Of a stretch of 64,000 nucleotides of DNA, positions 31,248 to 59,415 are shown in pieces; the first letter of the stretch is position 1; each line of letters starts with the position of its first letter. Source of the stretch: a virus; the IMG/VR virus record IMGVR_UViG_3300021375_000011, positions 56,836-120,835 of that record, one strand, 5' to 3'. Both the position numbers and the translations under genes were made by a program. Under the pieces are notes generated by a model. It searched no databases and was not told where the DNA came from. It worked only from the letters and a program-made list of their open reading frames with translations.

Positions 31248-31279
31248 AAACCCTAGTTTTTATTAACTAGGGTTTTTTT
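31248..31279 (+). terminator. Intrinsic terminator ending the structural operon
   Basis: AAACCCTAGTT (31248-31258), a 6-base loop, AACTAGGGTTT (31265-31275), then a run of T to 31279. The stem is 11 bp and followed by seven T. It separates the late structural genes from the accessory region. Confidence 0.88.
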
Positions 31280-37224: not shown

Positions 37225-37238
37225 AAATAATTATACAT

Positions 37239-42852: not shown

Positions 42853-43418
42853 TACTAGTTGTTATAGCATTAGAAGAAGAATTACCTGGATCATTACCCG
42901 CTGGTTATAAAAAACTAGTCACAGGTGTAGGAAAAGTAAATGCCAGTATTGCTCTTACTGCAGAATTGTGTTATAATGATAGATATAGCAAGATAATAAA
43001 TTATGGTTCAGCAGGCGGTAGTAAAGAAATTAAAGGCGAACTGGTAGGCGTAAGTGCAGTTATTGAACGTGATATGGATTGTACTCCACTTGGCTTGCCA
43101 CTGTATGTTTCACCAGGAGACGAAGAACAGATGATTGTTTGCCAAACAAAGCACGACAGTTTATTTGTTTGTGGCACAGGTGATAGTTTCAGCGTGCCAC
43201 ACATTAACTATCAAATATGCGAAATGGAAGCATATGCACTGGCAAAGGTTGCAACTAAATTTAAAGTGCCATTTGATTGTTACAAGTATATTTCAGATAG
43301 CGATGCAGATGGAGATGCACAGGGCGATGAATGGCGTGAAAATGTACACAAGGGTGCAGAATTGTTTAGAAAAACAATACTGGTTGAACAAGACTTACAG
43401 TTGGAGTGGGTCTGGTAA
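42849..43418 (+). CDS. MTA/SAH nucleosidase-like protein (MTAN family)
   Basis: 189 aa, shorter than E. coli MTAN (232 aa). All catalytic landmarks are recognisable: VVIALEEE with E11 in the place of E12, GVGKVNAS, NYGSAGG, the CEMEAYALA block with E127 as the ribose-binding Glu, and YISDSDADG with D150 as the proton donor. MTAN enzymes hydrolyse methylthioadenosine and S-adenosylhomocysteine, and also 5'-deoxyadenosine, the inhibitory by-product of radical-SAM enzymes. Lying between radical-SAM genes and in the same run as metK, it probably clears these by-products. The missing 40 residues are in the middle (between YVSPGDEE and VCGTGDSF). Confidence 0.82.
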   Translation: MILVVIALEEELPGSLPAGYKKLVTGVGKVNASIALTAELCYNDRYSKIINYGSAGGSKEIKGELVGVSAVIERDMDCTPLGLPLYVSPGDEEQMIVCQTKHDSLFVCGTGDSFSVPHINYQICEMEAYALAKVATKFKVPFDCYKYISDSDADGDAQGDEWRENVHKGAELFRKTILVEQDLQLEWVW

Positions 43419-43439
43419 AAACAAATAGAGTTACTTAAA

Positions 43440-44603: not shown

Positions 44604-45907
44604 AACAAAGACCAGAAAACTTATGTATGGCCCCATGGACTCATACCTATCTAAGCCCTCAGACAGAACGTAGAATGTGTTGTGCATCACGCGAGCCTGC
44701 ACAGAGCTTTGAACAGTATATTGATACTGACGCAGGCACAGGAACATACAATCCTCAAACACTAGAAGAACACTGGAACAGTGATCATATGCGTAGTGTT
44801 AGACGCAGAATGATGGCAGGTGAAAAACTTAGCGAGTGCGAAGTCTGTACAGACAAACTGCTAAACACAGATGTATATAGAACTTACTTTTGGCACTTGT
44901 TTCAACACAAATATGAAGATATCTGGCAAACCACCGACGAAACTGGATATACAACTATGAAACCTGTAAGTTGGGATTATAGATTTTCAAACTTGTGTAA
45001 CTTTAAATGCAGAACCTGTGGTGATATGTTGAGTAGCAGTTGGGAAACAGAACAACGTAAACACAACATGGTTAACTTAGATAATCCAAAAAACAATTGG
45101 ATGCGTCCAGAAGTGCGTAAAGAAATAAGCAAGTTTCAGGATACACAAATTGAAAAAGAGTTTTCAGATGCAGTTGAACAACATAGAGTTGAAGAAATCT
45201 ATTGGGTAGGCGGCGAACCACTTATGTATGAACAACACTGGCGTTATATGAAACGTATAGTGGAACTTGGTGACGGCCCAAAGTTATATGCAAGATACAA
45301 TACCAATCTAAGTAGAATAAAATACAAAGGTATACACTTAGGCCATGACATACTAAAAAATATACGTGACTGGCAAATATGTGCTAGTTTAGATGGTACA
45401 GGTGCAATCGGCGAATACATACGCACAGGCTTGAAGTATGATGAGTTTGTAGATAACTTCCGCACACTGTTACCAATGGCACGTAACAAACGCATGATGC
45501 GTTTAGATTATACATTGACACTGCCGGGTATGTTTGACATAAACAACATGCAGTTACTAGCAGATGAGCTAGATGTTGAAATACTTGCAAAAGTTATTTT
45601 TACTTTTACTCCAGACATTATAATGTCACCATTGGCGTTACCAAGAGACTTATTAGACCGTACAGTGAATCAAGCAGTAAGTAATTTGCAGTTAGGTAAT
45701 GCATTACATGATGTGCTTTCTCAACTTAAAAAACGTCCAACTATACAAGAAATATATGGACAAGAACAATATGAGCAAGGCATGCGTAAAGGGAAAAAAA
45801 GAATACTTGACTTAGAACGAATTAGAAATGATTCGTATACAATGAGAGATATACTCGGTGATGATAAAGAAATAATGCAATGGTGGGACAGTATAGATGC
45901 TGGATAG
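44600..45907 (+). CDS. Twitch-type radical SAM protein 5
   Basis: 435 aa from the ATG at 44600 (ATGA overlap with the previous stop); a GTG six bases upstream is the alternative. N-terminal LCMAPWTHTYLSPQTERRMC with C9, C27, C28, C80 and C83; radical-SAM triad C133, C137, C140 (LCNFKCRTCGD), then SSSWETE and GGE in WVGGEPLMY. Strands such as LYARYNTNLSRIKYKG and WQICASLDGTGAIGEYIRTG match protein 3. Last radical-SAM gene of the run. Confidence 0.87.
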   Translation: MKQRPENLCMAPWTHTYLSPQTERRMCCASREPAQSFEQYIDTDAGTGTYNPQTLEEHWNSDHMRSVRRRMMAGEKLSECEVCTDKLLNTDVYRTYFWHLFQHKYEDIWQTTDETGYTTMKPVSWDYRFSNLCNFKCRTCGDMLSSSWETEQRKHNMVNLDNPKNNWMRPEVRKEISKFQDTQIEKEFSDAVEQHRVEEIYWVGGEPLMYEQHWRYMKRIVELGDGPKLYARYNTNLSRIKYKGIHLGHDILKNIRDWQICASLDGTGAIGEYIRTGLKYDEFVDNFRTLLPMARNKRMMRLDYTLTLPGMFDINNMQLLADELDVEILAKVIFTFTPDIIMSPLALPRDLLDRTVNQAVSNLQLGNALHDVLSQLKKRPTIQEIYGQEQYEQGMRKGKKRILDLERIRNDSYTMRDILGDDKEIMQWWDSIDAG

Positions 45908-46952
45908 GGTAGAAATATTACTGAGAAACAACATGGGTTTTGTTTTGCCAGTGCATTTTGATGTATATGATAACAGTTTAAGTCGCAAATGGTTAGATGC
46001 TTTTAACAGTATATTAGATAATAATTTACATTTAGAAAAAAACTATTGCTTTTTTGGATTTCCTGATAGTCCTAGAGACTTGCATCATTTAGCATACGAA
46101 ATTAATCAAGTTATTGCAGGAATAAATGCTAGTTCTATAGATTACAACATAGATGATTTTTTCAGTGCTGATAATATGGTTGAAAAAAACTACAGTACAC
46201 GTGCTGGTAAAGATATCATTGAAGTAAATCATGAAAAGTTTAATCAACTACATTTATATTTTGAGGATACACAAGGTGTTAGTGGAGCAATGAGCAAACA
46301 TTACGAAAGTGCTGATGCAGAGACACGTTGGTATATTAGACAACTCAATTTGTTGTGTCACGAAGCAGAATGCCTTGTTCTTAGTTTAGGTAGACAACAA
46401 ACTACTCCAGAATGGGTCCGCCCTAGTAATGTAATGTGTTGGCTACATGCTCCGCGTTTTGTATTAGAAGAAGAGGATTATAAACTGTTTGGCATTGACA
46501 CAATTGCACGTGACCCTGGCGGGGTATACGTAGGTGTAAACAAAGCAGTTGGCAAGCATCATTATGAAGTGTTCAGTGATGAAGGCGGTGATAGCAGAAT
46601 AGATGAACTGACTACAACAACACTTAAACCGCAGACTGAGGCCGCTGGAGACTTTGACATAGAATGGGGTAAAGCAACAAAAGATCAGAAGTTTATGCAA
46701 ACAAAACTAAACAATTTTCGAACATGGTTAGTTGCTAATAACTTTGATCCTGACGATCCTAGTCTAACAATAGGACATCCAAAAATCGGCCAAGTAGACA
46801 TGCAACATACTTTTGGGACAGATGATTTTGTAGTAATGCTAACAAAATTATCAAAGCATCTCGATGTGTTTAGTATTAAAACAAGCAAAAGTTACGCTGA
46901 GTACGACTATACATGGGAAGATAGCAAAAGACTACAGGTACCACTATTATGA
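45897..46952 (+). CDS. Conserved phage protein of unknown function
   Basis: 351 aa, soluble, no transmembrane segment or known catalytic motif seen. Features are CLVLSLGRQQTTPEWVRPSN, MCWLHAPRFVLEEEDYKLFG, DPGGVYVGVNKAVGKHHYEV and the ending HPKIGQVDMQHTFGTDDFVV. This ordered set recalls a conserved hypothetical of marine T4-like phages; no role is known to me. Overlaps the last radical-SAM gene by 11 bases and the next gene by four, so it is co-translated with the island. Confidence 0.65.
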   Translation: MLDRVEILLRNNMGFVLPVHFDVYDNSLSRKWLDAFNSILDNNLHLEKNYCFFGFPDSPRDLHHLAYEINQVIAGINASSIDYNIDDFFSADNMVEKNYSTRAGKDIIEVNHEKFNQLHLYFEDTQGVSGAMSKHYESADAETRWYIRQLNLLCHEAECLVLSLGRQQTTPEWVRPSNVMCWLHAPRFVLEEEDYKLFGIDTIARDPGGVYVGVNKAVGKHHYEVFSDEGGDSRIDELTTTTLKPQTEAAGDFDIEWGKATKDQKFMQTKLNNFRTWLVANNFDPDDPSLTIGHPKIGQVDMQHTFGTDDFVVMLTKLSKHLDVFSIKTSKSYAEYDYTWEDSKRLQVPLL

Positions 46953-47668
46953 TTGAAGCTACTCCGTATCTAACCTGGGAATATTCAGACGATCCAGAAA
47001 TACAGTACCTTGAATGTCCAGCACCTACACCTATGCGTAACCATATGCCAAAATGGTTTAAGGATCTAAAAGCAAAAAGTCAAAAAGTAGTAACTGGTGA
47101 CGAACACAGGGCAGTGTTTGCAGAAAACAAAACAATACGCAACTGTTTAGGTTTTAGAGGAATAGCAAATATAGGTTATACAATTCCATTACCAGAAGAC
47201 TTAGATGGTTATGATACTTATTTCGCTAGAGGTAGAGTATCAGCACCAATGATTGAAGGCACACTATTTGGTAACAAAGGAGATAAACCTTGGGCAAGTG
47301 ATGATAATAGTTTATATGAATATAGGTTTAAGATACTCAACTATCCTTGGCGTGCTAAAATGGATAAAGGATGGCGACTGCTTGTACTTCCGTACCTACT
47401 AGACTGGAACAACGACTGGAACGAGTTTTCGGGTACTGTTGAACCAAACTATGATGTTCAACACGGAACACAGATTGGAAGCAGTTTAAAATGGACAACC
47501 CCCATTGATCCTGAGTATAATTACTATAACTTAGAAACTGTGATTGCTTATAAGCGTTCGGTATCAAAGATAAACAAAGGTACTTTAACTTTTTGTGCAG
47601 TTCCATTATTTGATCCAGAACTACTTGACAAACAAACAGAAGGCGTGTATAATGATAACATGGATTAA
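46949..47668 (+). CDS. Conserved phage protein of unknown function
   Basis: 239 aa. It begins with LECPAPTPMRNHMPKWFKDL, a stretch common to a family of marine-phage hypotheticals, followed by TIRNCLGFRGIANIGYTIPL and a Trp/Tyr-rich C-terminal half (DWNNDWNEFSG). No catalytic motif identified. Its last 17 bases overlap the start of the first microprotein gene in another frame. Confidence 0.65.
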   Translation: MIEATPYLTWEYSDDPEIQYLECPAPTPMRNHMPKWFKDLKAKSQKVVTGDEHRAVFAENKTIRNCLGFRGIANIGYTIPLPEDLDGYDTYFARGRVSAPMIEGTLFGNKGDKPWASDDNSLYEYRFKILNYPWRAKMDKGWRLLVLPYLLDWNNDWNEFSGTVEPNYDVQHGTQIGSSLKWTTPIDPEYNYYNLETVIAYKRSVSKINKGTLTFCAVPLFDPELLDKQTEGVYNDNMD

Positions 47669-47756
47669 TAATCTTATTAATAAGATTAAACTAGAGGTAC
47701 GATATCGTAAGAAACTTAAACAACTACGGAAAAAGGACCCGTATGTTTACAAATGA
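47652..47756 (+). CDS. Basic 34-aa microprotein, copy A
   Basis: A 34-residue frame starting MITWINNLINKIKLEVRY and ending in KKDPYVYK. It is an amphipathic, Lys/Arg-rich helix with an aromatic tail. A second copy at 48924-49025 matches it at about 23 of 33 aligned positions, with nearly all changes conservative, so the protein sequence is under selection. It overlaps the end of the preceding gene and the start of the methyltransferase gene, each in a different frame. Function unknown; binding to nucleic acid, ribosome or membrane is possible from its charge. Confidence 0.7.
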   Translation: MITWINNLINKIKLEVRYRKKLKQLRKKDPYVYK

Positions 47757-48927
47757 TGTACTTAACAAAGTTAGAACTGATATTGAATCATGGACAGTAA
47801 ATTTTGTGGAAGCAAGTAATGAATTTTATGGAGACAAGTTTCCTGTTTGTCCTTATGCCAGACAGGCAAGAATAAAAGGCGAAACAACCTATGCAATATA
47901 TCCTGGAGGGAATTTAAAACAGTTTATACAACACAGTGTTAATTTACTACTAGACAATGATAAACTCAAACAGATGCTTATAGTAATGCCACCGCGTGCA
48001 AAATACATATTTGGTATAAACAGAATGATACACAATATAAACAAAAGAATTATACCACTTAACTATTTTGCAATGAAAGGAAGTGCCAATGGAGCAACTA
48101 GCCATTATCCAGGCATAGGCGGCGAGTATCAGTTAATAGGCTTGAACACACTAGATAAAGTTCTAGAAGGCGTAAAATACCTAAAAAAGAAAGGTTATTA
48201 CAAAAACTGGAGCAAAAAACATTACAATGATATAGTTATAAGAAGGCAAGAAATGTATACCAAATACGGCGACAAAGATATAAAAGCATTCTACGACCGG
48301 ATTAACTTTCCTGGCAAATATCATTGCTCTGACGTTGTTGAATATTACAATGGCAACAGGTATATAAACTTTATTGAGAGATATATCAAAGGAGCCAAAA
48401 CAGTTCTTGATGCTGGGTGTGGCACAGGTTTTATTACAAATAATTTTGCATATAGAAATTCTGACATTCACTTTACCTCAGTAGACTTTGCAAAAAGTAT
48501 TGATTGGGCACAAGAAGTAAGTGCAGAACTAGAATTGCAAAATACCAAATTTATTAAACAAGACCTCAATGATTACAAAAGTAAAAAAAGTTATCGTGTT
48601 GTACTATGTCAAGGAGTCTTGCATCATATACCAAACTATGCACAGGTATTAAAAAACTTACAATCAATGGTTGCTAAAGACGGTTTGTTTATTATCGGGC
48701 TGTATCACCCATGGGGAAAGAAGTTACAAAAACTTCTACCTATAAAATACGATAGTAGAGTATTTGAAGAAGATCAAGAAGCAAATCCTTTTGAAACATC
48801 GTTTACAAAAACACAAACAGTAAGCATGTTTAAAGGATTTCAGTTGATAGATAGTTATCCAAGTGCGTTTTTTAATTGGCGTAATGGCGGATTAATTGTG
48901 TATGTTTTCAGAAAGGTACAAAAATGA
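47743..48927 (+). CDS. SAM-dependent methyltransferase with conserved N-terminal phage domain
   Basis: 394 aa. The C-terminal half is a class I methyltransferase: motif I VLDAGCGTGF at 221-230, the motif II acid in HFTSVDFAKS, motif IV VVLCQGVLHHIPNYAQVLKN and then LFIIGLYHPWGKK. The N-terminal 180 residues are a separate domain with PVCPYARQARIKGE and IMVMPPRAKYI-like strands, which I associate with other marine-phage proteins but cannot name. The ATG is preceded by AAAAAGGA at good spacing. It uses SAM made by the adjacent metK; substrate unknown. Flanked on both sides by the paired microprotein genes. Confidence 0.8.
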   Translation: MFTNDVLNKVRTDIESWTVNFVEASNEFYGDKFPVCPYARQARIKGETTYAIYPGGNLKQFIQHSVNLLLDNDKLKQMLIVMPPRAKYIFGINRMIHNINKRIIPLNYFAMKGSANGATSHYPGIGGEYQLIGLNTLDKVLEGVKYLKKKGYYKNWSKKHYNDIVIRRQEMYTKYGDKDIKAFYDRINFPGKYHCSDVVEYYNGNRYINFIERYIKGAKTVLDAGCGTGFITNNFAYRNSDIHFTSVDFAKSIDWAQEVSAELELQNTKFIKQDLNDYKSKKSYRVVLCQGVLHHIPNYAQVLKNLQSMVAKDGLFIIGLYHPWGKKLQKLLPIKYDSRVFEEDQEANPFETSFTKTQTVSMFKGFQLIDSYPSAFFNWRNGGLIVYVFRKVQK

Positions 48928-49025
48928 AATGGATTAGAAATCTTATCAGTAAGATCAAACTAGAAATACGATACAGAAAAAAACTTAAAGAACTACGGAA
49001 GAGGGATCCTTTTATATACAAATGA
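48924..49025 (+). CDS. Basic 33-aa microprotein, copy B
   Basis: 33 residues starting MKWIRNLISKIKLEIRY and ending KRDPFIYK. ATGA overlaps at both ends: its ATG overlaps the methyltransferase stop (48924-48927) and its TGA overlaps the metK ATG (49022-49025). It is a clear paralog of the 47652-47756 frame, and the GGATCC/AAAGAACTACGGAAG coding stretch also carries purine-rich ribosome-site-like sequence for metK. Function unknown. Confidence 0.72.
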   Translation: MKWIRNLISKIKLEIRYRKKLKELRKRDPFIYK

Positions 49026-50125
49026 GTTATATTTTTACATCAGAGTCAGTGAGCGAAGGCCATCCTGACAAAATAGCAGATCAAATATCAGATGCATTAG
49101 TCGATGCTGGTTTGCAAGCCGGTGACGAAACCACACGTGTTGCAGTAGAAACAATGGTAACAACAAACTATGTTGTACTAGCAGGCGAAGTAAAAAACTT
49201 CAACGTCACTGATGAACAAGTTGAACAAATTATAAGAGACAAAGTTAAAGAAATTGGCTACGAGCAAGAAGGCTTTCATTGGGATAAACTGACAGTTGAT
49301 AATAAAACAATTAACAACCAGTTGCATTCTCAAAGTTCAGACATTGCTCTAGGCACAGATGATTTTGGTGCAGGTGATCAAGGGCTCATGTTTGGTTACG
49401 CATGCAATGAGAATGATGCGTACCTGCCGGCACCAATTTACTATTCACATGAAATATTAAAAAATATAAAATCCAAACGAACCGACGGGTACAAGTACCT
49501 TGGTCCAGATGCTAAGAGTCAAGTTAGTGTAGAGTATGACGGCGGTAAGGTAAAACGTATTGATCAAGTTGTTGTAAGTCAACAACACAAAGATGAAAGT
49601 TTTTATGAACCATCACGTATGGCTACAAGATCAGCATGCGAAGAAGTACTAGGAGATTTAATAGATGACAAGACTATATTCCATCTTAATCCAACTGGCA
49701 ATTTTGTCATTGGTGGTCCTGATGGTGATGCTGGCGTTACAGGACGCAAAATTATCGTTGATACCTATGGCGGCTTTGCTCCTCATGGTGGCGGTGCTTT
49801 CTCAGGAAAAGATCCTACAAAAGTAGATAGATCGGCTGCCTATATGGCACGTTGGTTAGCAAAGAATGTTGTAGCAGACGACATGGCTGACTGGTGTCAA
49901 ATACAGATATCATATGCTATTGGAGTAAAAGAACCTACCAGCATCTACATAGATTCAAATGGACACAATAGAAGTATACAAAAGTTTATTCGTGACAACA
50001 TTGATCTTACACCAAAAGGTATAATTGATAGATTTGATATGTTTAATTTTTATAACTACAGTGCAAATTGCACATACGGACACTTTGGCAACAAAGATGT
50101 ACCTTGGGAACGTATAGGTTGGTAA
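49022..50125 (+). CDS. metK: S-adenosylmethionine synthetase
   Basis: 367 aa, near the usual 380-390. All signatures are present: SESVSEGHPDKIADQISDA at 7-25 with H14 and D16, GAGDQGLMFGYA from 116, and GGGAFSGKDPTKVDRSAAY at 256-274. It makes SAM from methionine and ATP in the cytoplasm. The start overlaps the stop of microprotein B, and the next gene follows the stop directly. In this setting it would raise SAM supply for seven radical-SAM enzymes and at least one methyltransferase. Confidence 0.96.
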   Translation: MSYIFTSESVSEGHPDKIADQISDALVDAGLQAGDETTRVAVETMVTTNYVVLAGEVKNFNVTDEQVEQIIRDKVKEIGYEQEGFHWDKLTVDNKTINNQLHSQSSDIALGTDDFGAGDQGLMFGYACNENDAYLPAPIYYSHEILKNIKSKRTDGYKYLGPDAKSQVSVEYDGGKVKRIDQVVVSQQHKDESFYEPSRMATRSACEEVLGDLIDDKTIFHLNPTGNFVIGGPDGDAGVTGRKIIVDTYGGFAPHGGGAFSGKDPTKVDRSAAYMARWLAKNVVADDMADWCQIQISYAIGVKEPTSIYIDSNGHNRSIQKFIRDNIDLTPKGIIDRFDMFNFYNYSANCTYGHFGNKDVPWERIGW

Positions 50126-51631
50126 ATGAAGATACTAGGAGTAAGTGCTGGCTTTCATGATGCCGCATTAACAGTTATGCATAATCATAATGTATTGTTT
50201 GCAGGGCATGCAGAACGTTACAGCAAGATCAAAAACGATAGTACTATTCCAGTAAGTCTACAACAAAAGGCAAAAGAATACGGACCGTTTGATAAGATAG
50301 TCTACTACGAAAAGCCACATCTGAGACAACTGCGTAAAATTAAAAGTGGAGAGAGTTGGGGAGGTGCTTGGCGTACACGCACTGAACTAGAACAAACTAT
50401 ACCTTACATAATGGAAAACACCAAAGCAGAAATTAGCAGTGTTGGACATCATCTATCGCATGCGGCCGCAGGCTTTCAAACATCACCATTTGATGACGCA
50501 ACAGTTGTGGTAATAGATGCCATTGGTGAAACAGATACCGTCAGCATATATCATGCATACTATAATGGTGCATGCCTAGCAGGTGAACATGCTAAGGCAA
50601 ATTACAAACTGTTATACAAACAATCATATCCTCACAGTATTGGTATGTTCTACAGTGCAGTAACCAAACGTTGCGGACTGAAGCCAATGGATGAAGAGTA
50701 CATCACAATGGGCATGGCTGCTTACGGCGATGCTGACAAGGCATACAATACATTAAAACGTGCAACTGTGCGATTTACAGATATTCCTCTGTTTCAAGAA
50801 AACCTACACATAGGTATTGATGATGTTGGGTTTGCAGCCGACGTTTACGCAGAAGACATAGCCGCCGCAGGACAACAGTTATGCGAAGAAATGGTTATGG
50901 GTGTGATGCGTAGAGCAAAGGCTCTTGGCACTAGTAAAAATCTTGTGTACATGGGCGGAGTTGCACTTAACTGTGTTATTAATCGACGATTGGGTGAACT
51001 GTTTAACAAAATATGGATAATGCCCAACCCAGGAGATGCAGGAAGCAGTTTAGGTGCGGCAGCTTATGCATACGGTAGAGACATAAACTTTACAACACCT
51101 TATCTGGGCTCAAATATAGCAGGTGAATACCCAGTAGACGAACTGTTGAAAGAATTAGAAACAAATAAAATTGTTGGAGTTGCAAATGGACGTGCAGAAT
51201 TTGGTCCAAGAGCACTGGGCAATAGAAGTTTGTTAGCAGATCCTCGTGGCGCAGATATCAAGGACCGTGTGAATGAAATAAAACGTAGACAAAAGTTTAG
51301 ACCTTTTGCTCCTGTGATACTTGAAGAGCATGTACATGACTATTTTGCAATGCCTCTTTATCAACCCACAAGTCGTTACATGCAGGTGGTTGCACGTTGT
51401 ACAAAACCTGATCTGTTTCCGGCTATCATACATGTTGACGGTACATCAAGAGTACAAACAGTTCCAGACAATGACTCTGGTATCAGGCAATTGTTGAGTG
51501 CATGGTATAGAAAGACAGGTTGTCCTATGTTGTTAAATACTAGCCTTAACATAAGAGGCGAGCCGATGGTTGATGACAGGTCTGATGCTAATCGCTTTGA
51601 AAAAGAATACGGCGTAACAGTATGCAGTTAG
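50126..51631 (+). CDS. Carbamoyltransferase (NodU/CmcH/TobZ family)
   Basis: 501 aa. The N-terminal Kae1-like domain starts MKILGVSAGFHDAALTV and contains the metal-binding set GHHLSHAAAGF (H108, H109, H112), DEEYITMGMAAYGD and VYMGGVALNCVIN. The C-terminal YrdC-like domain has EFGPRALGNRSLLADPR and FRPFAPVILEEH. These enzymes move a carbamoyl group from carbamoyl phosphate, via carbamoyl-AMP, to a hydroxyl of a sugar or antibiotic (Nod factor, cephamycin, tobramycin). Directly follows metK and overlaps the Fe-S assembly gene, linking O-carbamoylation with the radical-SAM island. Confidence 0.92.
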   Translation: MKILGVSAGFHDAALTVMHNHNVLFAGHAERYSKIKNDSTIPVSLQQKAKEYGPFDKIVYYEKPHLRQLRKIKSGESWGGAWRTRTELEQTIPYIMENTKAEISSVGHHLSHAAAGFQTSPFDDATVVVIDAIGETDTVSIYHAYYNGACLAGEHAKANYKLLYKQSYPHSIGMFYSAVTKRCGLKPMDEEYITMGMAAYGDADKAYNTLKRATVRFTDIPLFQENLHIGIDDVGFAADVYAEDIAAAGQQLCEEMVMGVMRRAKALGTSKNLVYMGGVALNCVINRRLGELFNKIWIMPNPGDAGSSLGAAAYAYGRDINFTTPYLGSNIAGEYPVDELLKELETNKIVGVANGRAEFGPRALGNRSLLADPRGADIKDRVNEIKRRQKFRPFAPVILEEHVHDYFAMPLYQPTSRYMQVVARCTKPDLFPAIIHVDGTSRVQTVPDNDSGIRQLLSAWYRKTGCPMLLNTSLNIRGEPMVDDRSDANRFEKEYGVTVCS

Positions 51632-51939
51632 AAGAAAATGAACTAAGACAACGTGTGATTGAATCATTACAAAAAGTCTACGATCCAGAAATGCCCAGTG
51701 TAAGTGTATACGACTTAGGCTTGATATACAAACTTGAAATAGATGGCGATAGGTGTATGGTAGAACACACACTTACATCAATGGCATGTCCTTTTGCTGA
51801 TCAAATCTGTAATGACATTGAACAAGCAATGATCAATACTGAAGGTGTGCGTGCTATAGATAGACAGTTGGTATTTGAACCGCAGTTTACAATGGAAATG
51901 GTTCCAGAAGAAACCAAATTAATTATGGGTTGGTACTAA
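51622..51939 (+). CDS. MIP18/SufT-like Fe-S cluster assembly protein (DUF59)
   Basis: 105 aa, a typical single-domain MIP18/PaaD/SufT protein: YDPEMPSVSVYDLGLIYKLE at 20-39 and LTSMACPFAD with the conserved Cys at 56. Family members help insert Fe-S clusters into target proteins. Its position at the end of an operon with seven [4Fe-4S] radical-SAM enzymes suggests that it matures them during infection, although MIP18 proteins also occur alone in marine phages. Overlaps the carbamoyltransferase gene by 10 bases and the next ATG by one (TAATG). Confidence 0.87.
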   Translation: MQLEENELRQRVIESLQKVYDPEMPSVSVYDLGLIYKLEIDGDRCMVEHTLTSMACPFADQICNDIEQAMINTEGVRAIDRQLVFEPQFTMEMVPEETKLIMGWY

Positions 51940-52046
51940 TGGATACAAGACTAATATTTGGCTTACTTGCTTTGCCTGTACTTGCTTATATTGCATACTA
52001 TGTTGGTTTAGAACTTTGGTGCTATGCGTATGGACTACTATATTAA
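51939..52046 (+). CDS. 35-aa single-pass membrane peptide
   Basis: A 35-residue frame (MDTRLIFGLLALPVLAYIAY, then YVGLELWCYAYGLLY) whose ATG uses the last base of the Fe-S gene's stop. It has one strongly hydrophobic span covering about residues 5-24 and an aromatic C-terminus. It ends four bases inside the convergent amidinotransferase gene. Function unknown; it could be a membrane-acting peptide or anchor. Confidence 0.6.
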   Translation: MDTRLIFGLLALPVLAYIAYYVGLELWCYAYGLLY

Positions 52047-53083
52047 AGATAAGTTTCCAAACCACCTTTTCGTCTAATGTCTTGTGTGCAACAACTCACT
52101 CCGCCGTCCCAGAAATAACTGTGTCTTAGTTCTGAAATAATTGGATTTATTCTGTGTTTCTCACAATAATCAAAAACCTGCTTATTGTACGCACTAAAGA
52201 TAACATTCTCTTCATCTAATACCAAACAGTTAACGTCAAACACTGTGTCGCTTACATAGCCGACCCATTCTTTAAGATAGGTATCAACAAATTTGGTAAA
52301 TTCTTCTGTAGGAGTTTGTCCTTGTACATACCAAGCACCGTTGAAGTTTTCTTCTTTAAATTTGCCAACTGCCATTGCATGTGCTATAGTACTATGTTCT
52401 AGTTTGCTTACGTCCCATCCTGGAAAGTCTGATGCTAAATCTAACTGGTCATCCCATTTGCTACTTAACAGGACTCCTGGCTTTAGTATTGCAAACACTG
52501 CATCACCATGTCCGTCTGTTATTGCTTCGTGAAAAGTATATCTACTGTCAAGGCAGTTTTCCTGTATCCATTTGCTTTGCTCAGGTTTAAGATAGTCACT
52601 GTTATCAAAGAATATGTCGGTACCAACACGCACTATACAACTTGCACTGGCCCCATTTAATACACAGTCTGGATCCCAATATTCTCCATGCGGATTAACA
52701 ACTTGATCGCCGTACTCTGCACATATTTCATCTAGTTCGCTAACTTTAAGCACTCGCAAAAGTTTATCTCCTAAACTGATTTGCCAGTCTCTTGGAGTAA
52801 GCGGAGGCACAGGTGCACCAGGATTTTCACCTTCTGCAGGTTTGGTTTGCCATAGTGCAAATTTATCTTTATCAGGCAACGCTGGTCGAAGTACTTTTGC
52901 ACCAAATGTTTCGCAAGTCTTTTGTAAGTTATCTAAATCTTCATTTGTTTCCGCAAGTATTTGTTGTAATTGATTACGCACTTGAGCATCTTCAATGAAA
53001 TCAAAATAATTAGGAGTATATGCTCTTCCTACTATAACTTCTTCAAGAGGTTGCCAACTGGTGTATGCACTTACTTTAGACAT
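52043..53083 (-). CDS. Amidinotransferase (GATM/StrB-like)
   Basis: 346 aa. The ending GGVSCCTQDIRRKGGLETYL aligns by eye with the GATM ending in which the Cys after GG-x-x is the nucleophile, here C331. The catalytic His/Asp pair is in DGHGDAVFAILKPGVLLSS (H192, D194). The N-terminus WQPLEEVIVGRAYTPNY is the family's usual opening. Such enzymes transfer an amidino group from arginine to an amine, giving guanidino compounds (guanidinoacetate; the guanidino groups of streptomycin). Acceptor unknown here; nearby sugar aminotransferase and carbamoyltransferase genes point to an amino sugar or cyclitol. The gene is convergent with the island. Confidence 0.87.
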   Translation of the reverse strand: MSKVSAYTSWQPLEEVIVGRAYTPNYFDFIEDAQVRNQLQQILAETNEDLDNLQKTCETFGAKVLRPALPDKDKFALWQTKPAEGENPGAPVPPLTPRDWQISLGDKLLRVLKVSELDEICAEYGDQVVNPHGEYWDPDCVLNGASASCIVRVGTDIFFDNSDYLKPEQSKWIQENCLDSRYTFHEAITDGHGDAVFAILKPGVLLSSKWDDQLDLASDFPGWDVSKLEHSTIAHAMAVGKFKEENFNGAWYVQGQTPTEEFTKFVDTYLKEWVGYVSDTVFDVNCLVLDEENVIFSAYNKQVFDYCEKHRINPIISELRHSYFWDGGVSCCTQDIRRKGGLETYL

Positions 53084-53958
53084 ATTAATATATTTTCCGT
53101 TTCTTTGTTTAGAAATAATTGTTGATTATGCAAAAGATCTTCTTTACAATCAGTGTACATGACGTGAATTTTTTTTGACTTTGCAATTCTACACATTTCC
53201 GTACAAACTGCCTCCCAACGTTCAGTTGGATCTTGTATAGTATCGTATGAATGATCAACAACATGATCAAATGTGCGATAGCCCATTTCACGTAGTTGTT
53301 GTACACTACCACATGCGCCTGCAATTACAAATGGTTGACTATTCTTTATTGCTTTAAAAACTTTTTCAGTAAGACGTACTGGACCTGTTAAGTTGCTTTC
53401 TATAACAAAATTAAAATAGGCATCACTGTGATGTAAACCCACAGTGTATTTCATATCTGCATGTTCATCAGCAGTTAATAAGTCGCAATGAAAAGGAGCA
53501 AGTTTTAAAAAGAATTCTGTATGATGTTTTAGACTGCCTAAATTGCTGGTATCGATTGGATTTATATCGTCTTCCACAGTGATTTGGTTGTTGTAACCAA
53601 AGTAACCTTGTTCGTGTAAACCCTTACTCCACAACCGTGCCATTGTATACGCACGCCATTCCTTGTGCGTACGAACTAATGCAGTAAACTTCTTACTGCG
53701 TTCTTGTGTGTGATAAACTGTGGGCATACTTCTATTACGATGCCTATAAAACAGTTCATCGCTACACATATAGGCAGTACCTGCAAGATCATGACTTTTA
53801 GTGGATTCAGTGGTAAAATGCACATTATCTTCTGAAAAACCTGCACTTACGGCATCTCTAATGTAGGTTTTTTTAACAGATTCTCTATTGGTCAAAAAAG
53901 TTAAATTTATTTGTTTATCACCTACAATGTTACGTATGTTTTCTATTATATTTGCCAT
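53071..53958 (-). CDS. Glycosyltransferase-like conserved phage protein, copy 1
   Basis: 295 aa. Its last 100 residues carry RLTEKVFKAIKNSQPFVIAG, a GSVQQLREMGYRTF block and VDHSYDTIQDPTERWEA. The upstream gene on the same strand has the same ordered set, so the two are paralogs. The LTEK-x-F-K-x-I-x-x-x-QPF motif recalls the acceptor/donor-binding end of retaining GT-B or GT10-type glycosyltransferases (TEK then a drop to P-x-I), hence the tentative call. N-terminal half: KFTALVRTHKEWRAYTMARL. Overlaps both neighbours by 13 bases. Confidence 0.55.
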   Translation of the reverse strand: MANIIENIRNIVGDKQINLTFLTNRESVKKTYIRDAVSAGFSEDNVHFTTESTKSHDLAGTAYMCSDELFYRHRNRSMPTVYHTQERSKKFTALVRTHKEWRAYTMARLWSKGLHEQGYFGYNNQITVEDDINPIDTSNLGSLKHHTEFFLKLAPFHCDLLTADEHADMKYTVGLHHSDAYFNFVIESNLTGPVRLTEKVFKAIKNSQPFVIAGACGSVQQLREMGYRTFDHVVDHSYDTIQDPTERWEAVCTEMCRIAKSKKIHVMYTDCKEDLLHNQQLFLNKETENILICLK

Positions 53959-55001
53959 GTATTCATCATTTCAGTAAGTTCTTTCCAAAGCAATTTTTCA
54001 AACTGGTCACTATAAAACCAGTTGTAATTGTGCTCTACAGTGCTATTTACTGCGGTTTGCAAGGTGGTCTTTTCTTTTTGGCTCATTGTATTAATAGATT
54101 GTAACAGTTTGCCTATCTCGTATGTACGCACACCGTCTTCAGCTTCGTCATATGATTCGTCCCAAAAATCTCCAAATGTCCGAAAGCCATAACGACGTAG
54201 ATATTCTAAACTGCCCTTGCAACTCTGTATTATAAAAGGTTGTTGCATTACAATTGGCTTAAATGATTTTTCAGTAAGATGGTTCTTACGTCCTCTGAAA
54301 ACTGTTTCAGTAACAACATGAACCAAACTATTGTTTGCTTGTTCCCATAAATCAATTTTATGACTCTGTGCCGCATAACCTGAACCGTTATCAATCATAA
54401 GTGGCAATCGCACTTTAGGACAATCTAGTTCATATTTTACACATAATAATTCTAAACTTTGTCCTTCATATGGACATACATCTGGAAACGATATAAGATT
54501 TTTATCTAGCAAATCACGCCCAACAAACTGTTGAAGCATTTCTATTCTGTGTCTACGTTCACCACCAATTATATTATTAGGACAAAGAAAAGTATTATAA
54601 GGCTTGCGTTCTGAAAATTTTTGTGCTAAACTAGTACGATTATAACCACGATACCAATCAAGTGCAGCCCAAGCATGAAAAAAGTAATAACCATTTTCAA
54701 GTCCATAAGTATCACACACCCATGCAATATCATCACTTTGATATTCACTATGTATAATTTTACACGAGTTTTTTTGAGAGTAAATAGGCTGAAATTGTTC
54801 AATAAAAGATTTGAATCTATATCGATGTACTGGTTCTTGATCCCAAAATATAATTCTATTATTGCACTGATTGTCAACTGCTGGTTTGTTAACTATATTT
54901 TTAAATTCTGTACTACCAAACGGATCAAACCAATGCAATCCGTTTGTGCCTTTTGCAAGAGGCAAAAATACATTTTCATAAATTTCGTCGATACGTATCA
55001 T
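53946..55001 (-). CDS. Glycosyltransferase-like conserved phage protein, copy 2
   Basis: 351 aa. The C-terminal block NHLTEKSFKPIVMQQPFIIQ, SLEYLRRYGFRTFGDFWDES and YDEAEDGVRTYEIG matches copy 1. The N-terminus has RIIFWDQEPVHRYRF, a DQEP motif shared with many marine-phage members of this family. Role is probably sugar transfer, by the same weak reasoning as copy 1. Its ATG (55001-54999) overlaps the ATG of the divergent 595-aa gene within a single CATG, and no Shine-Dalgarno sequence is seen. Confidence 0.55.
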   Translation of the reverse strand: MIRIDEIYENVFLPLAKGTNGLHWFDPFGSTEFKNIVNKPAVDNQCNNRIIFWDQEPVHRYRFKSFIEQFQPIYSQKNSCKIIHSEYQSDDIAWVCDTYGLENGYYFFHAWAALDWYRGYNRTSLAQKFSERKPYNTFLCPNNIIGGERRHRIEMLQQFVGRDLLDKNLISFPDVCPYEGQSLELLCVKYELDCPKVRLPLMIDNGSGYAAQSHKIDLWEQANNSLVHVVTETVFRGRKNHLTEKSFKPIVMQQPFIIQSCKGSLEYLRRYGFRTFGDFWDESYDEAEDGVRTYEIGKLLQSINTMSQKEKTTLQTAVNSTVEHNYNWFYSDQFEKLLWKELTEMMNTWQI

Positions 55002-56787
55002 GTTTGATAAATGTTACTCATACTCAAAAGAAGCTCTTGCACAGTGTAAGACTAGGTACTTATGGGTGCTTGATAAGCACTGCGATTATTCTCACTTTGA
55101 CTTTAGTTGGGAGCCGGCACCCTGGGAAAGCCACTTTAGACATGCGTTTGCTTCACAATGGCAAAAGGATTCTGGCACATATTTAATTCCAAAAGCAGGT
55201 TACACTGAAACAAAGTACAACACAGATAATACTGTTGTAAGACTACCTGATGTAACAAAGTGGGATAGCATGGATAGCGACTTTGACTATTCGTGGCATC
55301 ACGACGTTACTGAACCGCCTTACATATACCAATTTGGAACTCAACATCAAACAACAGGTGGCCCGAGATATACTGTAGCAGGTGCTGAAAGCACAAAGTT
55401 TGTAGGTGATATTACATCACGGGTGCGTGCAGTTGCTGGTGGAGCAGTATTAATTAAGCACTTGAACACACCATATGATGCAAACGTAAACATCATTGAC
55501 AGCACACGTTTCATAAGCAATTATCTTGATACACTTAAAAGAATACTAAAAAAGATCGATTCAGAATACGTATGGGTAATAAGCGACTTATGCGATTACG
55601 CAGACTTTGACTTCAGTTGGCATCCTGCACTGTGGCAAAATCGCATGCTACATGTTTTTCCTAGCAATGAACAAAAGTTTGGAGACACATTTTTTATTCA
55701 TATAGAGAGTTTTTTAGAAACTGTAAAAGACATTAAACTGTTAGAATATTACACGCCTTTAAATTTTGTTGACAAACGTGTGAAACGTAAACCGCCTACT
55801 CAAGTAAAGTTTGACACAGATAGTGTCGTTAATGCAGTATGGTCACATGAATTTACCACACCGGTTGTCCAGTTTTATAGATATCAAATTGAAAAGCCAG
55901 TAACAATAAGTTTATGGCAAGAAAGATTACGCACAGTTGTGCCTCTTAAAAAAGGTAGCGAATCAGTGCTTGTACCAAAAGATGCAAAAAACTATATCAA
56001 ACAACAGGTTTATGATTATGAATGGATTGATAAAAAACATAAGCCTGCTGATGCTACGCCATTGGATATTGTGTATATCAGCAATGGCGAAAGCAATGCT
56101 GAACGTAACTGGGTTTGGCTTAACAGTGTGCATCAAGGAAATAATAGAATTGTTAGAGTAGATGGTGTTAAAGGAAGAGCTGAAGCATATCGTGCAAGTC
56201 TTGAAGCAAGTAATACAGACTGGGCATTTTGTGTGTTTGCTAAACTAGAAGTAAACAAAGATTTTGATTGGACATGGCAACCTGACAGATTACAAGAGCC
56301 TAAGCATTATATTTTCCATGCACACAATCCTGTAAATGGGTTGGAATATGGACATATGGCAATGATTGCTTACAATAAACAACTCGTAGCAAATAACCAA
56401 GCTCAAGGTTTAGACTTCACACTTGATCAAGAACATGAAGTTGTTCCGTTGCTTAGTGGGATTGCTCGTTATGCAGATGATCCTTGGATTGCATGGCGAA
56501 GTGCGTTTCGTGAATGTTTAAAATTAAAACATTCGTTACCAAACATAGACAACAACTATCGTTTAAGCCAGTGGTTACAAGCGGATACAACGTCTGCTGT
56601 GGCTGGATGGAGTGCAATAGGTGCACAAGATGCAGTAAATTATTATGAATCCGTTGATGGAGATTTTGCTAGTTTACGTTTAACATATGAATGGGAATGG
56701 TTAGCTGATCACTTGTTCAAGCACCACAACCTAACACCTGATCAATTATGTACTCAACTTCAAGATCAGTCAGTTCAGGATAGATAG
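55000..56787 (+). CDS. Multi-module protein with three related domains (glycosyltransferase-like?)
   Basis: 595 aa. Modules 1 and 2 (about 18-66 and 188-240) share YLWVLDKHCDYSHFDFSW and YVWVISDLCDYADFDFSWHP, each followed by a W-x-H/HE...P segment (WHHDVTEPPYIYQFGTQ, VWSHEFTTPVVQFYRYQ). Module 3 (about 355-500) has DIVYISNGESNAERNW, AYRASLEASNTDWAF, DFDWTWQP and NPVNGLEYGHMAMI. It is homologous to the 307-aa protein at 33814-34737. This is a marine-phage family with no assigned activity that I know; a sugar role is suggested only by context. The start codon lies in a CATG shared with the divergent gene. The end overlaps the convergent aminotransferase gene by 71 bases. Confidence 0.6.
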   Translation: MFDKCYSYSKEALAQCKTRYLWVLDKHCDYSHFDFSWEPAPWESHFRHAFASQWQKDSGTYLIPKAGYTETKYNTDNTVVRLPDVTKWDSMDSDFDYSWHHDVTEPPYIYQFGTQHQTTGGPRYTVAGAESTKFVGDITSRVRAVAGGAVLIKHLNTPYDANVNIIDSTRFISNYLDTLKRILKKIDSEYVWVISDLCDYADFDFSWHPALWQNRMLHVFPSNEQKFGDTFFIHIESFLETVKDIKLLEYYTPLNFVDKRVKRKPPTQVKFDTDSVVNAVWSHEFTTPVVQFYRYQIEKPVTISLWQERLRTVVPLKKGSESVLVPKDAKNYIKQQVYDYEWIDKKHKPADATPLDIVYISNGESNAERNWVWLNSVHQGNNRIVRVDGVKGRAEAYRASLEASNTDWAFCVFAKLEVNKDFDWTWQPDRLQEPKHYIFHAHNPVNGLEYGHMAMIAYNKQLVANNQAQGLDFTLDQEHEVVPLLSGIARYADDPWIAWRSAFRECLKLKHSLPNIDNNYRLSQWLQADTTSAVAGWSAIGAQDAVNYYESVDGDFASLRLTYEWEWLADHLFKHHNLTPDQLCTQLQDQSVQDR

Positions 56788-57811
56788 GCAAACTAAGCAC
56801 ACGTCTTGACAAACTTGTACTGCTTGCCAACATTGGCTTTACACCTTCAAAAGAACCTATTTCATTTATACCATATTCATAGTGTACTTTGGTATCAACT
56901 CCTGCTTCTTTCAAACAATCTTGCATGATATTTCTGTCTGTGTCTATATCAATAACGAATTTGTGAAAACAATGTTCTTGTGCATTAGAACTGTCAATCA
57001 AACATCTAGTGCTTGACTTTTCGCTGAGTCTTTCCATCCAGTAGAGACCAATTGTTCGTCTGCGTTCTTGCCATTCGTCGATGTATTTTGTTTTAATCAG
57101 CATTGTTGCACAGTCTATTTCACTCATACGGCTGTTTGTGCCGCCAGTGATATGAGCTGATCCATTGGCTCTGTACCACCTTACAAATCTATCAATACTG
57201 GCTACGTCTGTAACAACTGCCCCACCATTTGCATAGTTTGCTAGATTCTTTGTAGGATCAAAACTTATTGCACTGGTACTAATTCTTTTACCATCCCAAC
57301 TAAGCCAATGTTGAGCTGCATCTTCTACAACAATCCAGTCCTGCTCGTCAAGCATATCTTTGAACTTTTGTGTTTGGTAGTTCTTTAAACTGTTGCCATA
57401 CAAGCCAACCAAACATACTGCCATGTTATTATAATGATGTCCTGCAACACTGTCTATATCTAACATGCCATATGAATCTGTGTCAGCAACTACAACTTTC
57501 CATCCTGCATTCGTCCATGCATTAGCAGTTGCACGATAGGTCAAGTTAGGAATGATAACCTGCGGATGACTAATATTCAATTGTTTGTAGTGATACTTGG
57601 CAATTGCTTCTAGTGCAACAGTGCCTGAACCAATTGTGATAGCATGATCAGAATTATTACGTTTTGCCAACCATGATTCAAATTCTTCTGTGTAGTTGCC
57701 ATCCATAAGTTGGCCACTACGCAATACAATATCAATGGTATCGAGAATTTCGCTTCGTAGTTGATTATACTGTTTTTTTAGACCAGTAAACGGAATCTTT
57801 AATCCACTCAT
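56717..57811 (-). CDS. DegT/DnrJ/StrS-family PLP aminotransferase
   Basis: 364 aa from the ATG at 57811; a TTG four codons upstream is less likely. Features are IPFTGLKKQYNQLRSEILD, SGQLMDGNYTEEFE, the PLP-pocket GSGTVALEAIA, VVEDAAQHW with D164 and the catalytic Lys in ISFDPTKNL (K188). C-terminal HKFVIDIDTDRN and YPELTDLEVEYII fit the family. These enzymes transaminate keto-sugars (or keto-cyclitols) to amino sugars. It follows the epimerase gene, with which it overlaps, so both probably serve one nucleotide-sugar pathway. Confidence 0.88.
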   Translation of the reverse strand: MSGLKIPFTGLKKQYNQLRSEILDTIDIVLRSGQLMDGNYTEEFESWLAKRNNSDHAITIGSGTVALEAIAKYHYKQLNISHPQVIIPNLTYRATANAWTNAGWKVVVADTDSYGMLDIDSVAGHHYNNMAVCLVGLYGNSLKNYQTQKFKDMLDEQDWIVVEDAAQHWLSWDGKRISTSAISFDPTKNLANYANGGAVVTDVASIDRFVRWYRANGSAHITGGTNSRMSEIDCATMLIKTKYIDEWQERRRTIGLYWMERLSEKSSTRCLIDSSNAQEHCFHKFVIDIDTDRNIMQDCLKEAGVDTKVHYEYGINEIGSFEGVKPMLASSTSLSRRVLSLPIYPELTDLEVEYIIDQVLGCGA

Positions 57812-58748
57812 AATAGTTTTCAAGTCCTTCTTCTATTTCTATTTTTGGATTAAATTTAAATGCCATCATTGCACTTGTACAATCAAGTGTGCCTCTGCTG
57901 GGCATATTTGTTTTCTTGGCTCTAACTTTTACAGTGCCTTTGCCTACTAACTTTACAATAGCATTTGCTACATCTAATATTTTTTCTTTTTTGCCTCTGC
58001 TGATATTATATGTGCCAGTTACATCTTTAGTAACACTTGCAAGTGCAATGCCAGTGGCAGTATCTTTTACATAGGTAAAATCCAATGTTTGGTCTTTGCC
58101 GTTTACATACAAGGTCTCATCAGCTATTGCACGTTTAAAAAATGTGCCTATTACTCTATTGCTAACATCAAGTGGTCCGTATACCGCAGTTGGTCTTATT
58201 ATTACATAACTCTGCCCAGTGGTACGATTGTATTCTTTTACCAACTCTTCGCCTGCTATTTTCCAAATGCTATACTGTCCACATGGATTAAGTGCGGTTT
58301 CCTCTGATGCTTCGTCAAAGTCGCCATACACCATACTAGAACTTATATAAACAAACTTTGCAGTTTTATGACGTGTGCAACAATCTAATAGGTTTGCAGT
58401 GCCTACGCACATAGTTCTGGCTGCTTCAATTGGATTGTCTTTAACTGCGGCTTCGTTTGGAAAACTAGCTAAGTGTATAACAACATCTGGCTGGAATGTT
58501 TTAAATATTTCATCTATTTCTGGTACACAAATGTCTTCTTTAAAGATTTGTGTGTTAGTATCAATTGCTTTAAGGCGTTGTGCAAACAGATATTCAAGTT
58601 CTTCTTTTGGAAGACTGCCATATGTAGTAAATGCGTCTACTGCTTGTACATCATTTTTTCTGGATTTTTGTAATTCTTTAATTACATTGTGTCCAATAAG
58701 GCCAACACCGCCGGTTACTAGTATCTTTTTCTTTTTAGCTGTTGCCAT
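57765..58748 (-). CDS. NAD-dependent epimerase/dehydratase (extended SDR)
   Basis: 327 aa from the ATG at 58748, which has GAGG nine bases upstream; ATG 58754 and a TTG further up are alternatives. The Rossmann motif GGVGLIG is at 13-19, the catalytic Ser near 138 (VYISSSMVYGD) and YxxxK as Y159-SIW-K163. It resembles GalE-type sugar-nucleotide 4-epimerases or dehydratases; the substrate cannot be read off. With the adjacent aminotransferase it would make an amino sugar. Overlaps thyX by 14 bases. Confidence 0.88.
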   Translation of the reverse strand: MATAKKKKILVTGGVGLIGHNVIKELQKSRKNDVQAVDAFTTYGSLPKEELEYLFAQRLKAIDTNTQIFKEDICVPEIDEIFKTFQPDVVIHLASFPNEAAVKDNPIEAARTMCVGTANLLDCCTRHKTAKFVYISSSMVYGDFDEASEETALNPCGQYSIWKIAGEELVKEYNRTTGQSYVIIRPTAVYGPLDVSNRVIGTFFKRAIADETLYVNGKDQTLDFTYVKDTATGIALASVTKDVTGTYNISRGKKEKILDVANAIVKLVGKGTVKVRAKKTNMPSRGTLDCTSAMMAFKFNPKIEIEEGLENYYEWIKDSVYWSKKTV

Positions 58749-59415
58749 TTGCATATGCCTCAATATTAGGAAATATTTTTGCTATAGCATCAGCACAGGC
58801 ATGTGCGATATCCATGTGTTCTTGTTGAGTACCGTTAGCACCTCTTAGTTCAACATAGTGTATCCAACTACGTATTGTACCATTCATGTACAGTGTGGTC
58901 TTTGTGATACCTTCAGGCAATACTTTACGTGCTTGTTCTTTAGCAATGCCCTTTTTTATAGCCCAGTCGTATTCTTTTTTGGCTAGTACACCGATACGAC
59001 GTTGTGCCCGTTCCCATTCCAATTGGAGTTCTCCATCATCCGTTTTGATACTGTTTTGCCTGTTCTTTGGATCCTGTAGTCTGGCTTCTGAATATTCAAA
59101 CATGTCGCCTTGTTCATCAGGATTGGCGTATCGTTGCGAAAACTCTTGGAAACTAAAACTTCTATGTCGCACTATTTGATGTGCAATATCACGAGTGGTT
59201 TGAATTTCTAAACAAGCACTTGCCATTTCAAAGGGTGACCAATGTTTGTGTTTAACCAAATAGTTAAGCAACTTTTCGTGTGTGGCAGTGTTTATTTGAT
59301 GATTTGGATTGGAAACTTTTGCACAATAGGCAATTAAATCCTGTGTGCTTTTCAGTGGTTCGTCGTAGGTTTGAAACTCACTTGGCTTGCTGTATGATAC
59401 TAATCTTACTTTCAT
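58735..59415 (-). CDS. thyX: Flavin-dependent thymidylate synthase ThyX
   Basis: 226 aa. The ThyX signature RHRxxSxxExSxRY is present as RHRSFSFQEFSQRY at 83-96, and the C-terminal LYMNGTIRSWIHYVELR is also typical. ThyX makes dTMP from dUMP with methylene-tetrahydrofolate and FAD, and is common in marine phages for DNA synthesis on an AT-rich genome. ATGA-type overlap with the upstream small gene. Confidence 0.95.
   Translation of the reverse strand: MKVRLVSYSKPSEFQTYDEPLKSTQDLIAYCAKVSNPNHQINTATHEKLLNYLVKHKHWSPFEMASACLEIQTTRDIAHQIVRHRSFSFQEFSQRYANPDEQGDMFEYSEARLQDPKNRQNSIKTDDGELQLEWERAQRRIGVLAKKEYDWAIKKGIAKEQARKVLPEGITKTTLYMNGTIRSWIHYVELRGANGTQQEHMDIAHACADAIAKIFPNIEAYANGNS

What the first reader, a model, noticed from the sequence alone, without database searches (positions are those of the whole stretch)
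50126..58748. Aminoglycoside-like sugar-decoration toolkit in a phage
Seen: NodU/TobZ-type carbamoyltransferase, GATM/StrB-type amidinotransferase, DegT/StrS-type aminotransferase, extended-SDR epimerase and glycosyltransferase-like proteins within 9 kb, next to the radical-SAM run. Known: this enzyme set (amination, amidination, carbamoylation, rSAM epimerisation/rearrangement) is typical of aminoglycoside and decorated-glycan biosynthesis. Inference: the phage makes or modifies an amino sugar, perhaps for virion or host-surface glycans.
Basis: partly seen in the sequence, partly recalled or inferred. Interest (0 to 1): 0.75.

Follow-up and report, generated by a model that had tools for sequence, protein, structure and literature searches.

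The report
Phage sugar-decorating gene module
A giant aquatic phage and its relatives carry, right after their tail genes, a conserved set of enzymes that look able to make an amino sugar with guanidino and carbamoyl groups and attach it to something; it is not an antibiotic pathway, and what it decorates (virion or host surface) is still unknown.

Summary
The radical-SAM run next door has its own supply genes (MetK, MTA/SAH nucleosidase, SufT/PaaD-like). The record is a fragment of a jumbo myophage. The linkage is not chance: gene order is kept in dozens of viral contigs, 31-38 kb past the baseplate wedge gene, and the amidinotransferase is about as conserved as the wedge (64-86% against 62-87%). 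Catalytic residues are nearly invariant and dN/dS is mostly 0.03-0.3. The aminoglycoside reading is not supported: no DOI/DHQ-synthase homologue in 14 records, a carbamoyltransferase farther from TobZ than from other O-carbamoyltransferases, an amidinotransferase no nearer StrB than AGAT. A carbamoylated-cytosine route is unlikely (no hydroxymethylase found). Best reading: a core phage module that builds and transfers a modified amino sugar, most likely onto virion tail proteins, with host-surface glycan change a close rival. The oddest fact lies around it: 8-21 twitch-type radical-SAM matches per related record. Real and functional, a new variant of phage glycan-decoration islands; product and target unproven.

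The parts
50126..51631 (+). O-carbamoyltransferase (PF02543 + PF16861), TobZ/NodU family, own phage clade
   Evidence: H108, H112, D131, D304, E358, R362, R367 identical in 72 of 72 relatives; dN/dS 0.07-0.08
51622..51939 (+). SufT/PaaD-like Fe-S assembly protein (PF01883); near clade only
52043..53083 (-). amidinotransferase, AGAT/StrB superfamily
   Evidence: R98, H192, D194, C331 identical in 40 of 40 relatives
53071..53958 (-). glycosyltransferase-like protein a (homologue of protein b)
   Evidence: shared invariant T-E-K-x-F motif in alignment A3
53946..55001 (-). glycosyltransferase b, GT-B fold
   Evidence: AlphaFold pLDDT 89.8; Foldseek TarM/SdgB probability 1.0, E 4e-4
55000..56787 (+). 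595-aa multi-domain GT-A-like protein (X595); C-terminal domain homologous to 33691-34737
   Evidence: hhalign 99.6%, 1.6e-24; present in 50 of 51 informative loci
56717..57823 (-). DegT-type PLP sugar aminotransferase (PF01041)
   Evidence: Lys192 identical in 37 of 37 relatives
57765..58763 (-). extended SDR, epimerase-type (SSS[MN]VYG in place of the dehydratase TDE-VYG motif)
33691..34737 (+). GT-A-like protein with an invariant DxD motif, homologous to the end of X595
   Evidence: recurs next to X595 in distant relatives
34731..47668 (+). radical-SAM run: 7 radical-SAM genes (5 of them N-terminal-twitch NF033640, one with a weak B12-binding match), MTA/SAH-nucleosidase-like 42849-43418, and unassigned 43440-44603, 45897-46952, 46949-47668
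47743..48927 (+). SAM-dependent methyltransferase
   Evidence: sigma-70-like 12/12 promoter at 47625-47653
49022..50125 (+). methionine adenosyltransferase (MetK), near clade only
   Evidence: TIGR01034 429 bits, cut-off 309
31248..31275 (+). intrinsic-terminator-like hairpin between the last tail gene and the radical-SAM cluster

Best explanation
This is a core (not accessory) module of a clade of aquatic jumbo myophages that takes host nucleotide sugars, remodels them and transfers them. Proposed steps: the SDR epimerises/oxidises an NDP-sugar; DegT aminates a keto sugar; the amidinotransferase moves an amidino group from arginine to that amine (guanidino sugar); GT-B (a, b) and GT-A-like (X595, 33691) enzymes build the glycan; the carbamoyltransferase O-carbamoylates it; neighbouring radical-SAM and methyltransferase enzymes tailor it further, fed by MetK, an MTA/SAH nucleosidase and SufT in this sub-clade. 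I think the most likely acceptor is a virion protein (tail fibre or giant baseplate protein), glycosylated in the cytoplasm. Shown: gene identities, conserved linkage, conserved catalytic residues, purifying selection, position beside tail genes. Inferred: substrates, order of steps, acceptor.
For: Gene identities and folds. Linkage: X595 in 50 of 51, a radical-SAM gene in 48 of 50 informative loci; in the closer group (carbamoyltransferase at least 55% identical) amidinotransferase 25/34, DegT 27/34, GT-b 30/34, SDR 24/34; DegT present in 11 of 11 core records at this place. Amidinotransferase identity tracks the wedge gene: 86/87, 82/83, 81/86, 73/73, 72/73, 64/65-66, 76/65, 74/62. Module lies 31-38 kb downstream of the wedge gene in the 10 records where both lie in one stretch. 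Catalytic residues nearly invariant, dN/dS mostly 0.03-0.3. For virion rather than membrane glycan: no hydrophobic membrane segment in any module protein and no initiating sugar-phosphate transferase PF02397 in 14 records, control positive. TAAATA behaves as a late promoter (26 seen against 87 expected; directly before tail genes in relatives 9/9, 5/5, 8/8, 7/8) and stands just before the amidinotransferase in about 21 of 35 relatives and before X595 in the distant group.
Against: No product, acceptor or expression data. In this window itself no TAAATA stands directly before the amidinotransferase or carbamoyltransferase; a terminator separates tail genes from the cluster and a perfect sigma-70-like promoter precedes the MT-MetK-carbamoyltransferase genes, which suggests early expression there. 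TAAATA before the amidinotransferase lies in codons of a partly conserved peptide. The SDR looks like an epimerase, so the source of the keto sugar for DegT is not identified. Published analogues are usually read as O-antigen modifiers (PMC7029224, PMC7824862). Flippase and WecA families were not searched.
Confidence: 0.42

Rival explanations
1. The module changes the host's surface glycan (O-antigen or capsule) early in infection or pseudolysogeny, to block other phages; the phage uses host lipid-carrier and export machinery.
For: Sugar enzymes plus GT; sigma-70-like promoter before the MT-MetK-carbamoyltransferase genes and terminator after the tail genes; literature on cyanophages and pelagimyophages interprets analogous islands this way (PMC7824862; PMC7029224); a cyanophage homologue of the amidinotransferase sits next to KdsA/KdsB.
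Against: Module is core and as conserved as the baseplate wedge, unlike the sporadic, polymorphic O-antigen islands; no membrane-embedded or initiating enzyme in the module; late-type motifs in relatives.
Confidence: 0.3
2. Modification of peptides or proteins other than by glycosylation: the radical-SAM/twitch proteins and amidino/carbamoyl transferases act on side chains (RiPP-like) of virion proteins.
For: SPASM/twitch radical-SAM enzymes often modify peptides; 8-21 matches per record; radical-SAM runs recur beside tail genes in an unrelated phage (PMC12390700).
Against: DegT, SDR and several GT-type proteins are sugar enzymes; no precursor peptide was identified.
Confidence: 0.12
3. DNA base hypermodification: carbamoyltransferase and GTs act on hydroxymethyl-pyrimidines.
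For: A phage carbamoyltransferase acts on 5hmdC (PMC8670742); ThyX lies next to the module.
Against: No PF00303 thymidylate synthase/hydroxymethylase in 14 records while the control rings in 9; in that paper carbamoyltransferases beside GTs came from unmodified contigs. The Tet/JBP search was uninformative.
Confidence: 0.06
4. A diffusible aminoglycoside-like secondary metabolite made during infection.
For: Enzyme classes shared with aminoglycoside clusters; a metabolite reading has been proposed for a cyanophage carbamoyltransferase cluster (PMC7824862).
Against: No DOI/DHQ-synthase homologue; no TobZ or StrB affinity.
Confidence: 0.06

Closest known systems
Host-recognition-cluster islands of pelagimyophages (PMC7029224)
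   Same: glycosyltransferases and radical-SAM cassettes beside the tail genes of T4-type phages
   Different: those are hypervariable; here the module is a conserved core with amidinotransferase and carbamoyltransferase
Sugar/carbamoyltransferase islands of cyanophages (P-SSM2, S-SSM6a/S-SSM7; PMC7824862)
   Same: carbamoyltransferase plus NDP-sugar enzymes inserted after a tail fibre gene
   Different: carbamoyltransferase from another clade, halogenase and sugar kinases instead of radical-SAM, DegT and amidinotransferase
Radical-SAM-rich phages: TARA_ERS488813_N000010 (12 genes plus PaaD; PMC5332604) and Aeromonas phage 332-Vera (8 genes; PMC12390700)
   Same: many radical-SAM genes in one phage, with PaaD/SufT or beside tail fibres
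   Different: no amino-sugar toolkit is reported in the passages read; 332-Vera is a phiKZ-like phage
Aminoglycoside clusters (tobramycin TobZ, streptomycin StrB/StrS)
   Same: enzyme classes
   Different: no aminocyclitol synthase; carbamoyltransferase and amidinotransferase do not group with TobZ or StrB
5hmdC carbamoyltransferase phages (PMC8670742)
   Same: PF02543/PF16861 enzyme in a phage
   Different: no hydroxymethylase (PF00303) found

Membership tests
O-carbamoyltransferase (TobZ/NodU, PF02543 + PF16861) | both domains and the metal-binding His/Asp set | tested here: met
   H108, H112, D131, D304 in 72/72
TobZ-like aminoglycoside carbamoyltransferases | closest to TobZ among characterised enzymes | tested here: not met
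   bit scores 7xb6 162, decarbamoylnovobiocin enzyme 161, GdmN 132-136, TobZ 109-112
Amidinotransferase (AGAT/StrB) | catalytic Cys and His-x-Asp in a homologous sequence | tested here: met
   (40/40); the third triad Asp has no clear equivalent (S148)
StrB (inosamine-phosphate amidinotransferase) | closer to StrB than to AGAT, SxtG or HsvA | tested here: inconclusive
   single sequence StrB 53 > AGAT 48; profile AGAT 91 > HsvA/SxtG 74 > StrB 70
Aminoglycoside biosynthesis cluster | 2-deoxy-scyllo-inosose synthase (DHQ-synthase family) | tested here: not met
   PF01761 absent in 14 records, control 11/14; several records may be fragments; inositol-1-phosphate synthase not tested
Sugar aminotransferase (DegT/DnrJ/EryC1/StrS) | family domain and PLP lysine | tested here: met
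   K192 37/37; best solved relatives 7b0d (scyllo-inositol transaminase), 2oga, QdtB
dTDP-glucose 4,6-dehydratase | Asp-Glu in the active-site TDE-VYG motif | tested here: not met
   SSSMVYG in 29 and SSSNVYG in 6 of 51 SDR sequences; TIGR01181 149 bits, cut-off 365
Lipid-linked O-antigen/capsule system | initiating sugar-phosphate transferase | tested here: not met
   PF02397 absent in 14 records; flippases and WecA not tested
Carbamoyl-hydroxymethylcytosine DNA modification | dCMP hydroxymethylase (PF00303) | tested here: not met
   Tet/JBP route not decided
N-terminal-twitch radical SAM (NF033640) | score above the curated cut-off of 170 bits | tested here: met
   406, 339, 292, 300 and 285 bits for five window proteins

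The most novel reading that the evidence does not exclude
The radical-SAM battery and the amino-sugar toolkit form one phage-encoded pathway, complete with SAM, Fe-S and by-product handling, that makes a sugar not known from cells (guanidino and carbamoyl bearing, perhaps with keto groups made by twitch radical-SAM dehydrogenation as in butirosin BtrN) and attaches it to the virion tail.
Probability: 0.2. Interest if true: 0.82.

Novelty: new variant of a known kind. Interest (0 to 1): 0.6.

Why it matters
Phage glycan islands are usually treated as variable accessory genes. Here an amination/amidination/carbamoylation/glycosyl-transfer set is as conserved as the baseplate and tied to the largest concentration of twitch-type radical-SAM proteins I found described for phages. 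If it decorates virions, it would be a phage-encoded, chemically elaborate virion glycan; if it decorates the host, a core superinfection or host-remodelling device. Either way it points to a large untested reservoir of sugar and radical-SAM chemistry in aquatic viruses.

Tried and rejected
Aminoglycoside pathway: rejected. DNA hydroxymethylation route: no PF00303. Tet/JBP search: no control rang, uninformative. Known defence system: only weak viperin hits on two radical-SAM proteins. Bacterial origin of the amidinotransferase: the genome scan returned two contigs, both phage-like by gene content inside MAGs; the pattern method has limited reach. Idea that the gene next to the Streptomyces Mg1 carbamoyltransferase is an X595 counterpart: no homology. 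Profile searches of GT-b, the 33691 protein and 45897-46952 against PDB sequences gave nothing. sigma-70 scan overall no better than shuffles; only the two 12/12 sites exceed expectation (0.15). Aeromonas phage 332-Vera is not in the collections. Two ORF/region requests failed on coordinates.
Full report
Setting. The window is bases 56836-120835 of a 120,835-base virus record. Its T4-type baseplate wedge gene (11120-14527) is 33-35% identical to those of the Rak2-like jumbo phages and of Atu_ph07, Phosso and SCTP-2, and the nearest long relatives are 316-345 kb contigs. So this is a fragment of an uncultivated jumbo myophage. Its host is unknown.

Observation. All enzymes named in the finding are present at the stated coordinates. 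The amidinotransferase is a remote member of its family: no Pfam or NCBIfam match, but StrB 2.7e-13 and AGAT 8.9e-12, and R98, H192, D194 and C331 are identical in 40 of 40 relatives. The glycosyltransferase-like genes are supported by fold: 53946-55001 is GT-B, and 55000-56787 is a multi-domain GT-A-like protein (weak) whose last domain is homologous to 33691-34737, which carries an invariant DxD. The SDR has an epimerase-type, not a dehydratase-type, active-site motif.

Linkage. I fetched 108 viral loci with the amidinotransferase and carbamoyltransferase as baits and typed their neighbours against the window. The order radical-SAM run, carbamoyltransferase, (amidinotransferase, GT-a, GT-b), X595, (DegT, SDR, ThyX) recurs. 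Over 64 distinct carbamoyltransferases, X595 is present in 50 of 51 loci with enough flank and a radical-SAM gene in 48 of 50; amidinotransferase, DegT, SDR and GT-b belong to the closer group and thin out in the more distant one (carbamoyltransferase about 55% or less). The invariant core is therefore carbamoyltransferase + X595 + radical-SAM; the amino-sugar enzymes are a clade-level addition (or were lost in the others).

Conservation. Across ten long relatives the amidinotransferase is about as conserved as the wedge protein (86/87, 82/83, 81/86, 73/73, 72/73, 64/65-66, 76/65, 74/62% identity) and lies 31-38 kb downstream of it. dN/dS between the window and two close relatives is 0.03-0.18 for most genes, higher (0.2-0.4) where DegT, SDR or X595 have been replaced by distant versions; some dS values are saturated, so these are rough. 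Further amidinotransferase paralogues (about 30-40% identical) occur elsewhere in most records.

Radical-SAM surroundings. Five window proteins pass the cut-off of the N-terminal-twitch radical-SAM family; related records hold 8-21 matches each, while the 14 named control genomes have none over the cut-off. MetK (over its cut-off), an MTA/SAH-nucleosidase-like protein and a SufT/PaaD-like protein sit among them, a plausible supply and clean-up set; MetK and SufT are limited to the closest relatives.

What it is not. No DHQ/DOI synthase, no initiating sugar-phosphate transferase, no thymidylate synthase/hydroxymethylase, and a nucleotidyltransferase only weakly in 2 of 14 records. Several records may be fragments, so each absence is moderate evidence; together, over 14 records, they argue against an aminoglycoside pathway, a self-contained lipid-linked polysaccharide and carbamoylated cytosine.

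Tree. The carbamoyltransferases of these jumbo phages form a clade (100/100) with two other phage genes and one Streptomyces plasmid gene, away from rhizobial-type and cyanophage Nol-like enzymes (several outgroup branches are long, and joins among them are unsafe).

Timing clue. TAAATA is strongly avoided in the window (26 against 87 expected) and stands directly before tail genes in the window and in nine relatives, so it very likely marks late promoters. It precedes the amidinotransferase in about 21 of 35 relatives and X595 in a distant group. In the window itself, however, a terminator-like hairpin follows the last tail gene, and a perfect sigma-70-like promoter precedes the methyltransferase-MetK-carbamoyltransferase genes. 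Timing therefore does not decide between virion and host surface.

Literature. Radical-SAM and glycosyltransferase cassettes beside tail genes are described for pelagimyophages (PMC7029224), 12 radical-SAM genes plus PaaD for a marine T4-like virus (PMC5332604), eight in an Aeromonas giant phage (PMC12390700), and carbamoyltransferase/sugar islands for cyanophages (PMC7824862). I found no paper describing this combination in the library searched.

Conclusion. The gene set is real, conserved and under selection. The most likely role is building and transferring a modified amino sugar, with virion tail proteins slightly preferred over the host surface as acceptor. The aminoglycoside label should be dropped.

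Noticed in passing
G000-G013 (records of the related loci); window 34731-45907: 8-21 matches to the N-terminal-twitch radical-SAM family (NF033640) per record, spread over the genomes, with no over-cut-off match in 14 control genomes.
   Followed up: partly
window 42849-43418, 49022-50125, 51622-51939: MTA/SAH-nucleosidase-like, MetK and SufT/PaaD-like genes: a radical-SAM supply kit, MetK and SufT limited to the closest relatives.
   Followed up: partly
whole window, e.g. 11096, 28146, 28810, 30199: TAAATA is avoided three-fold and sits before tail genes here and in nine relatives: a T4-type late promoter signal.
   Followed up: yes
window 14529-28124: A 4531-aa ORF behind the wedge gene with only weak FG-GAP and CBM matches, kept in all nine relatives checked.
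   Followed up: partly
window 56717-57823 and relatives: The DegT slot holds two distant lineages at the same place (26-30% against 50-85% identity), as if replaced in situ.
   Followed up: partly
L116:11943-13358: A Streptomyces sp. Mg1 plasmid carries the only bacterial carbamoyltransferase found that groups with the phage clade (45.6% identity).
   Followed up: partly
L114, L115: Two MAG contigs labelled Bacteroidetes and Rhodospirillaceae look like phage by gene content (PhoH-like, ThyX, 2OG-oxygenases); probably mis-binned.
   Followed up: partly
window 43440-44603: A protein with an LTGGIDS motif like asparagine-synthetase PP-loops but no Pfam, NCBIfam or PDB match.
   Followed up: partly
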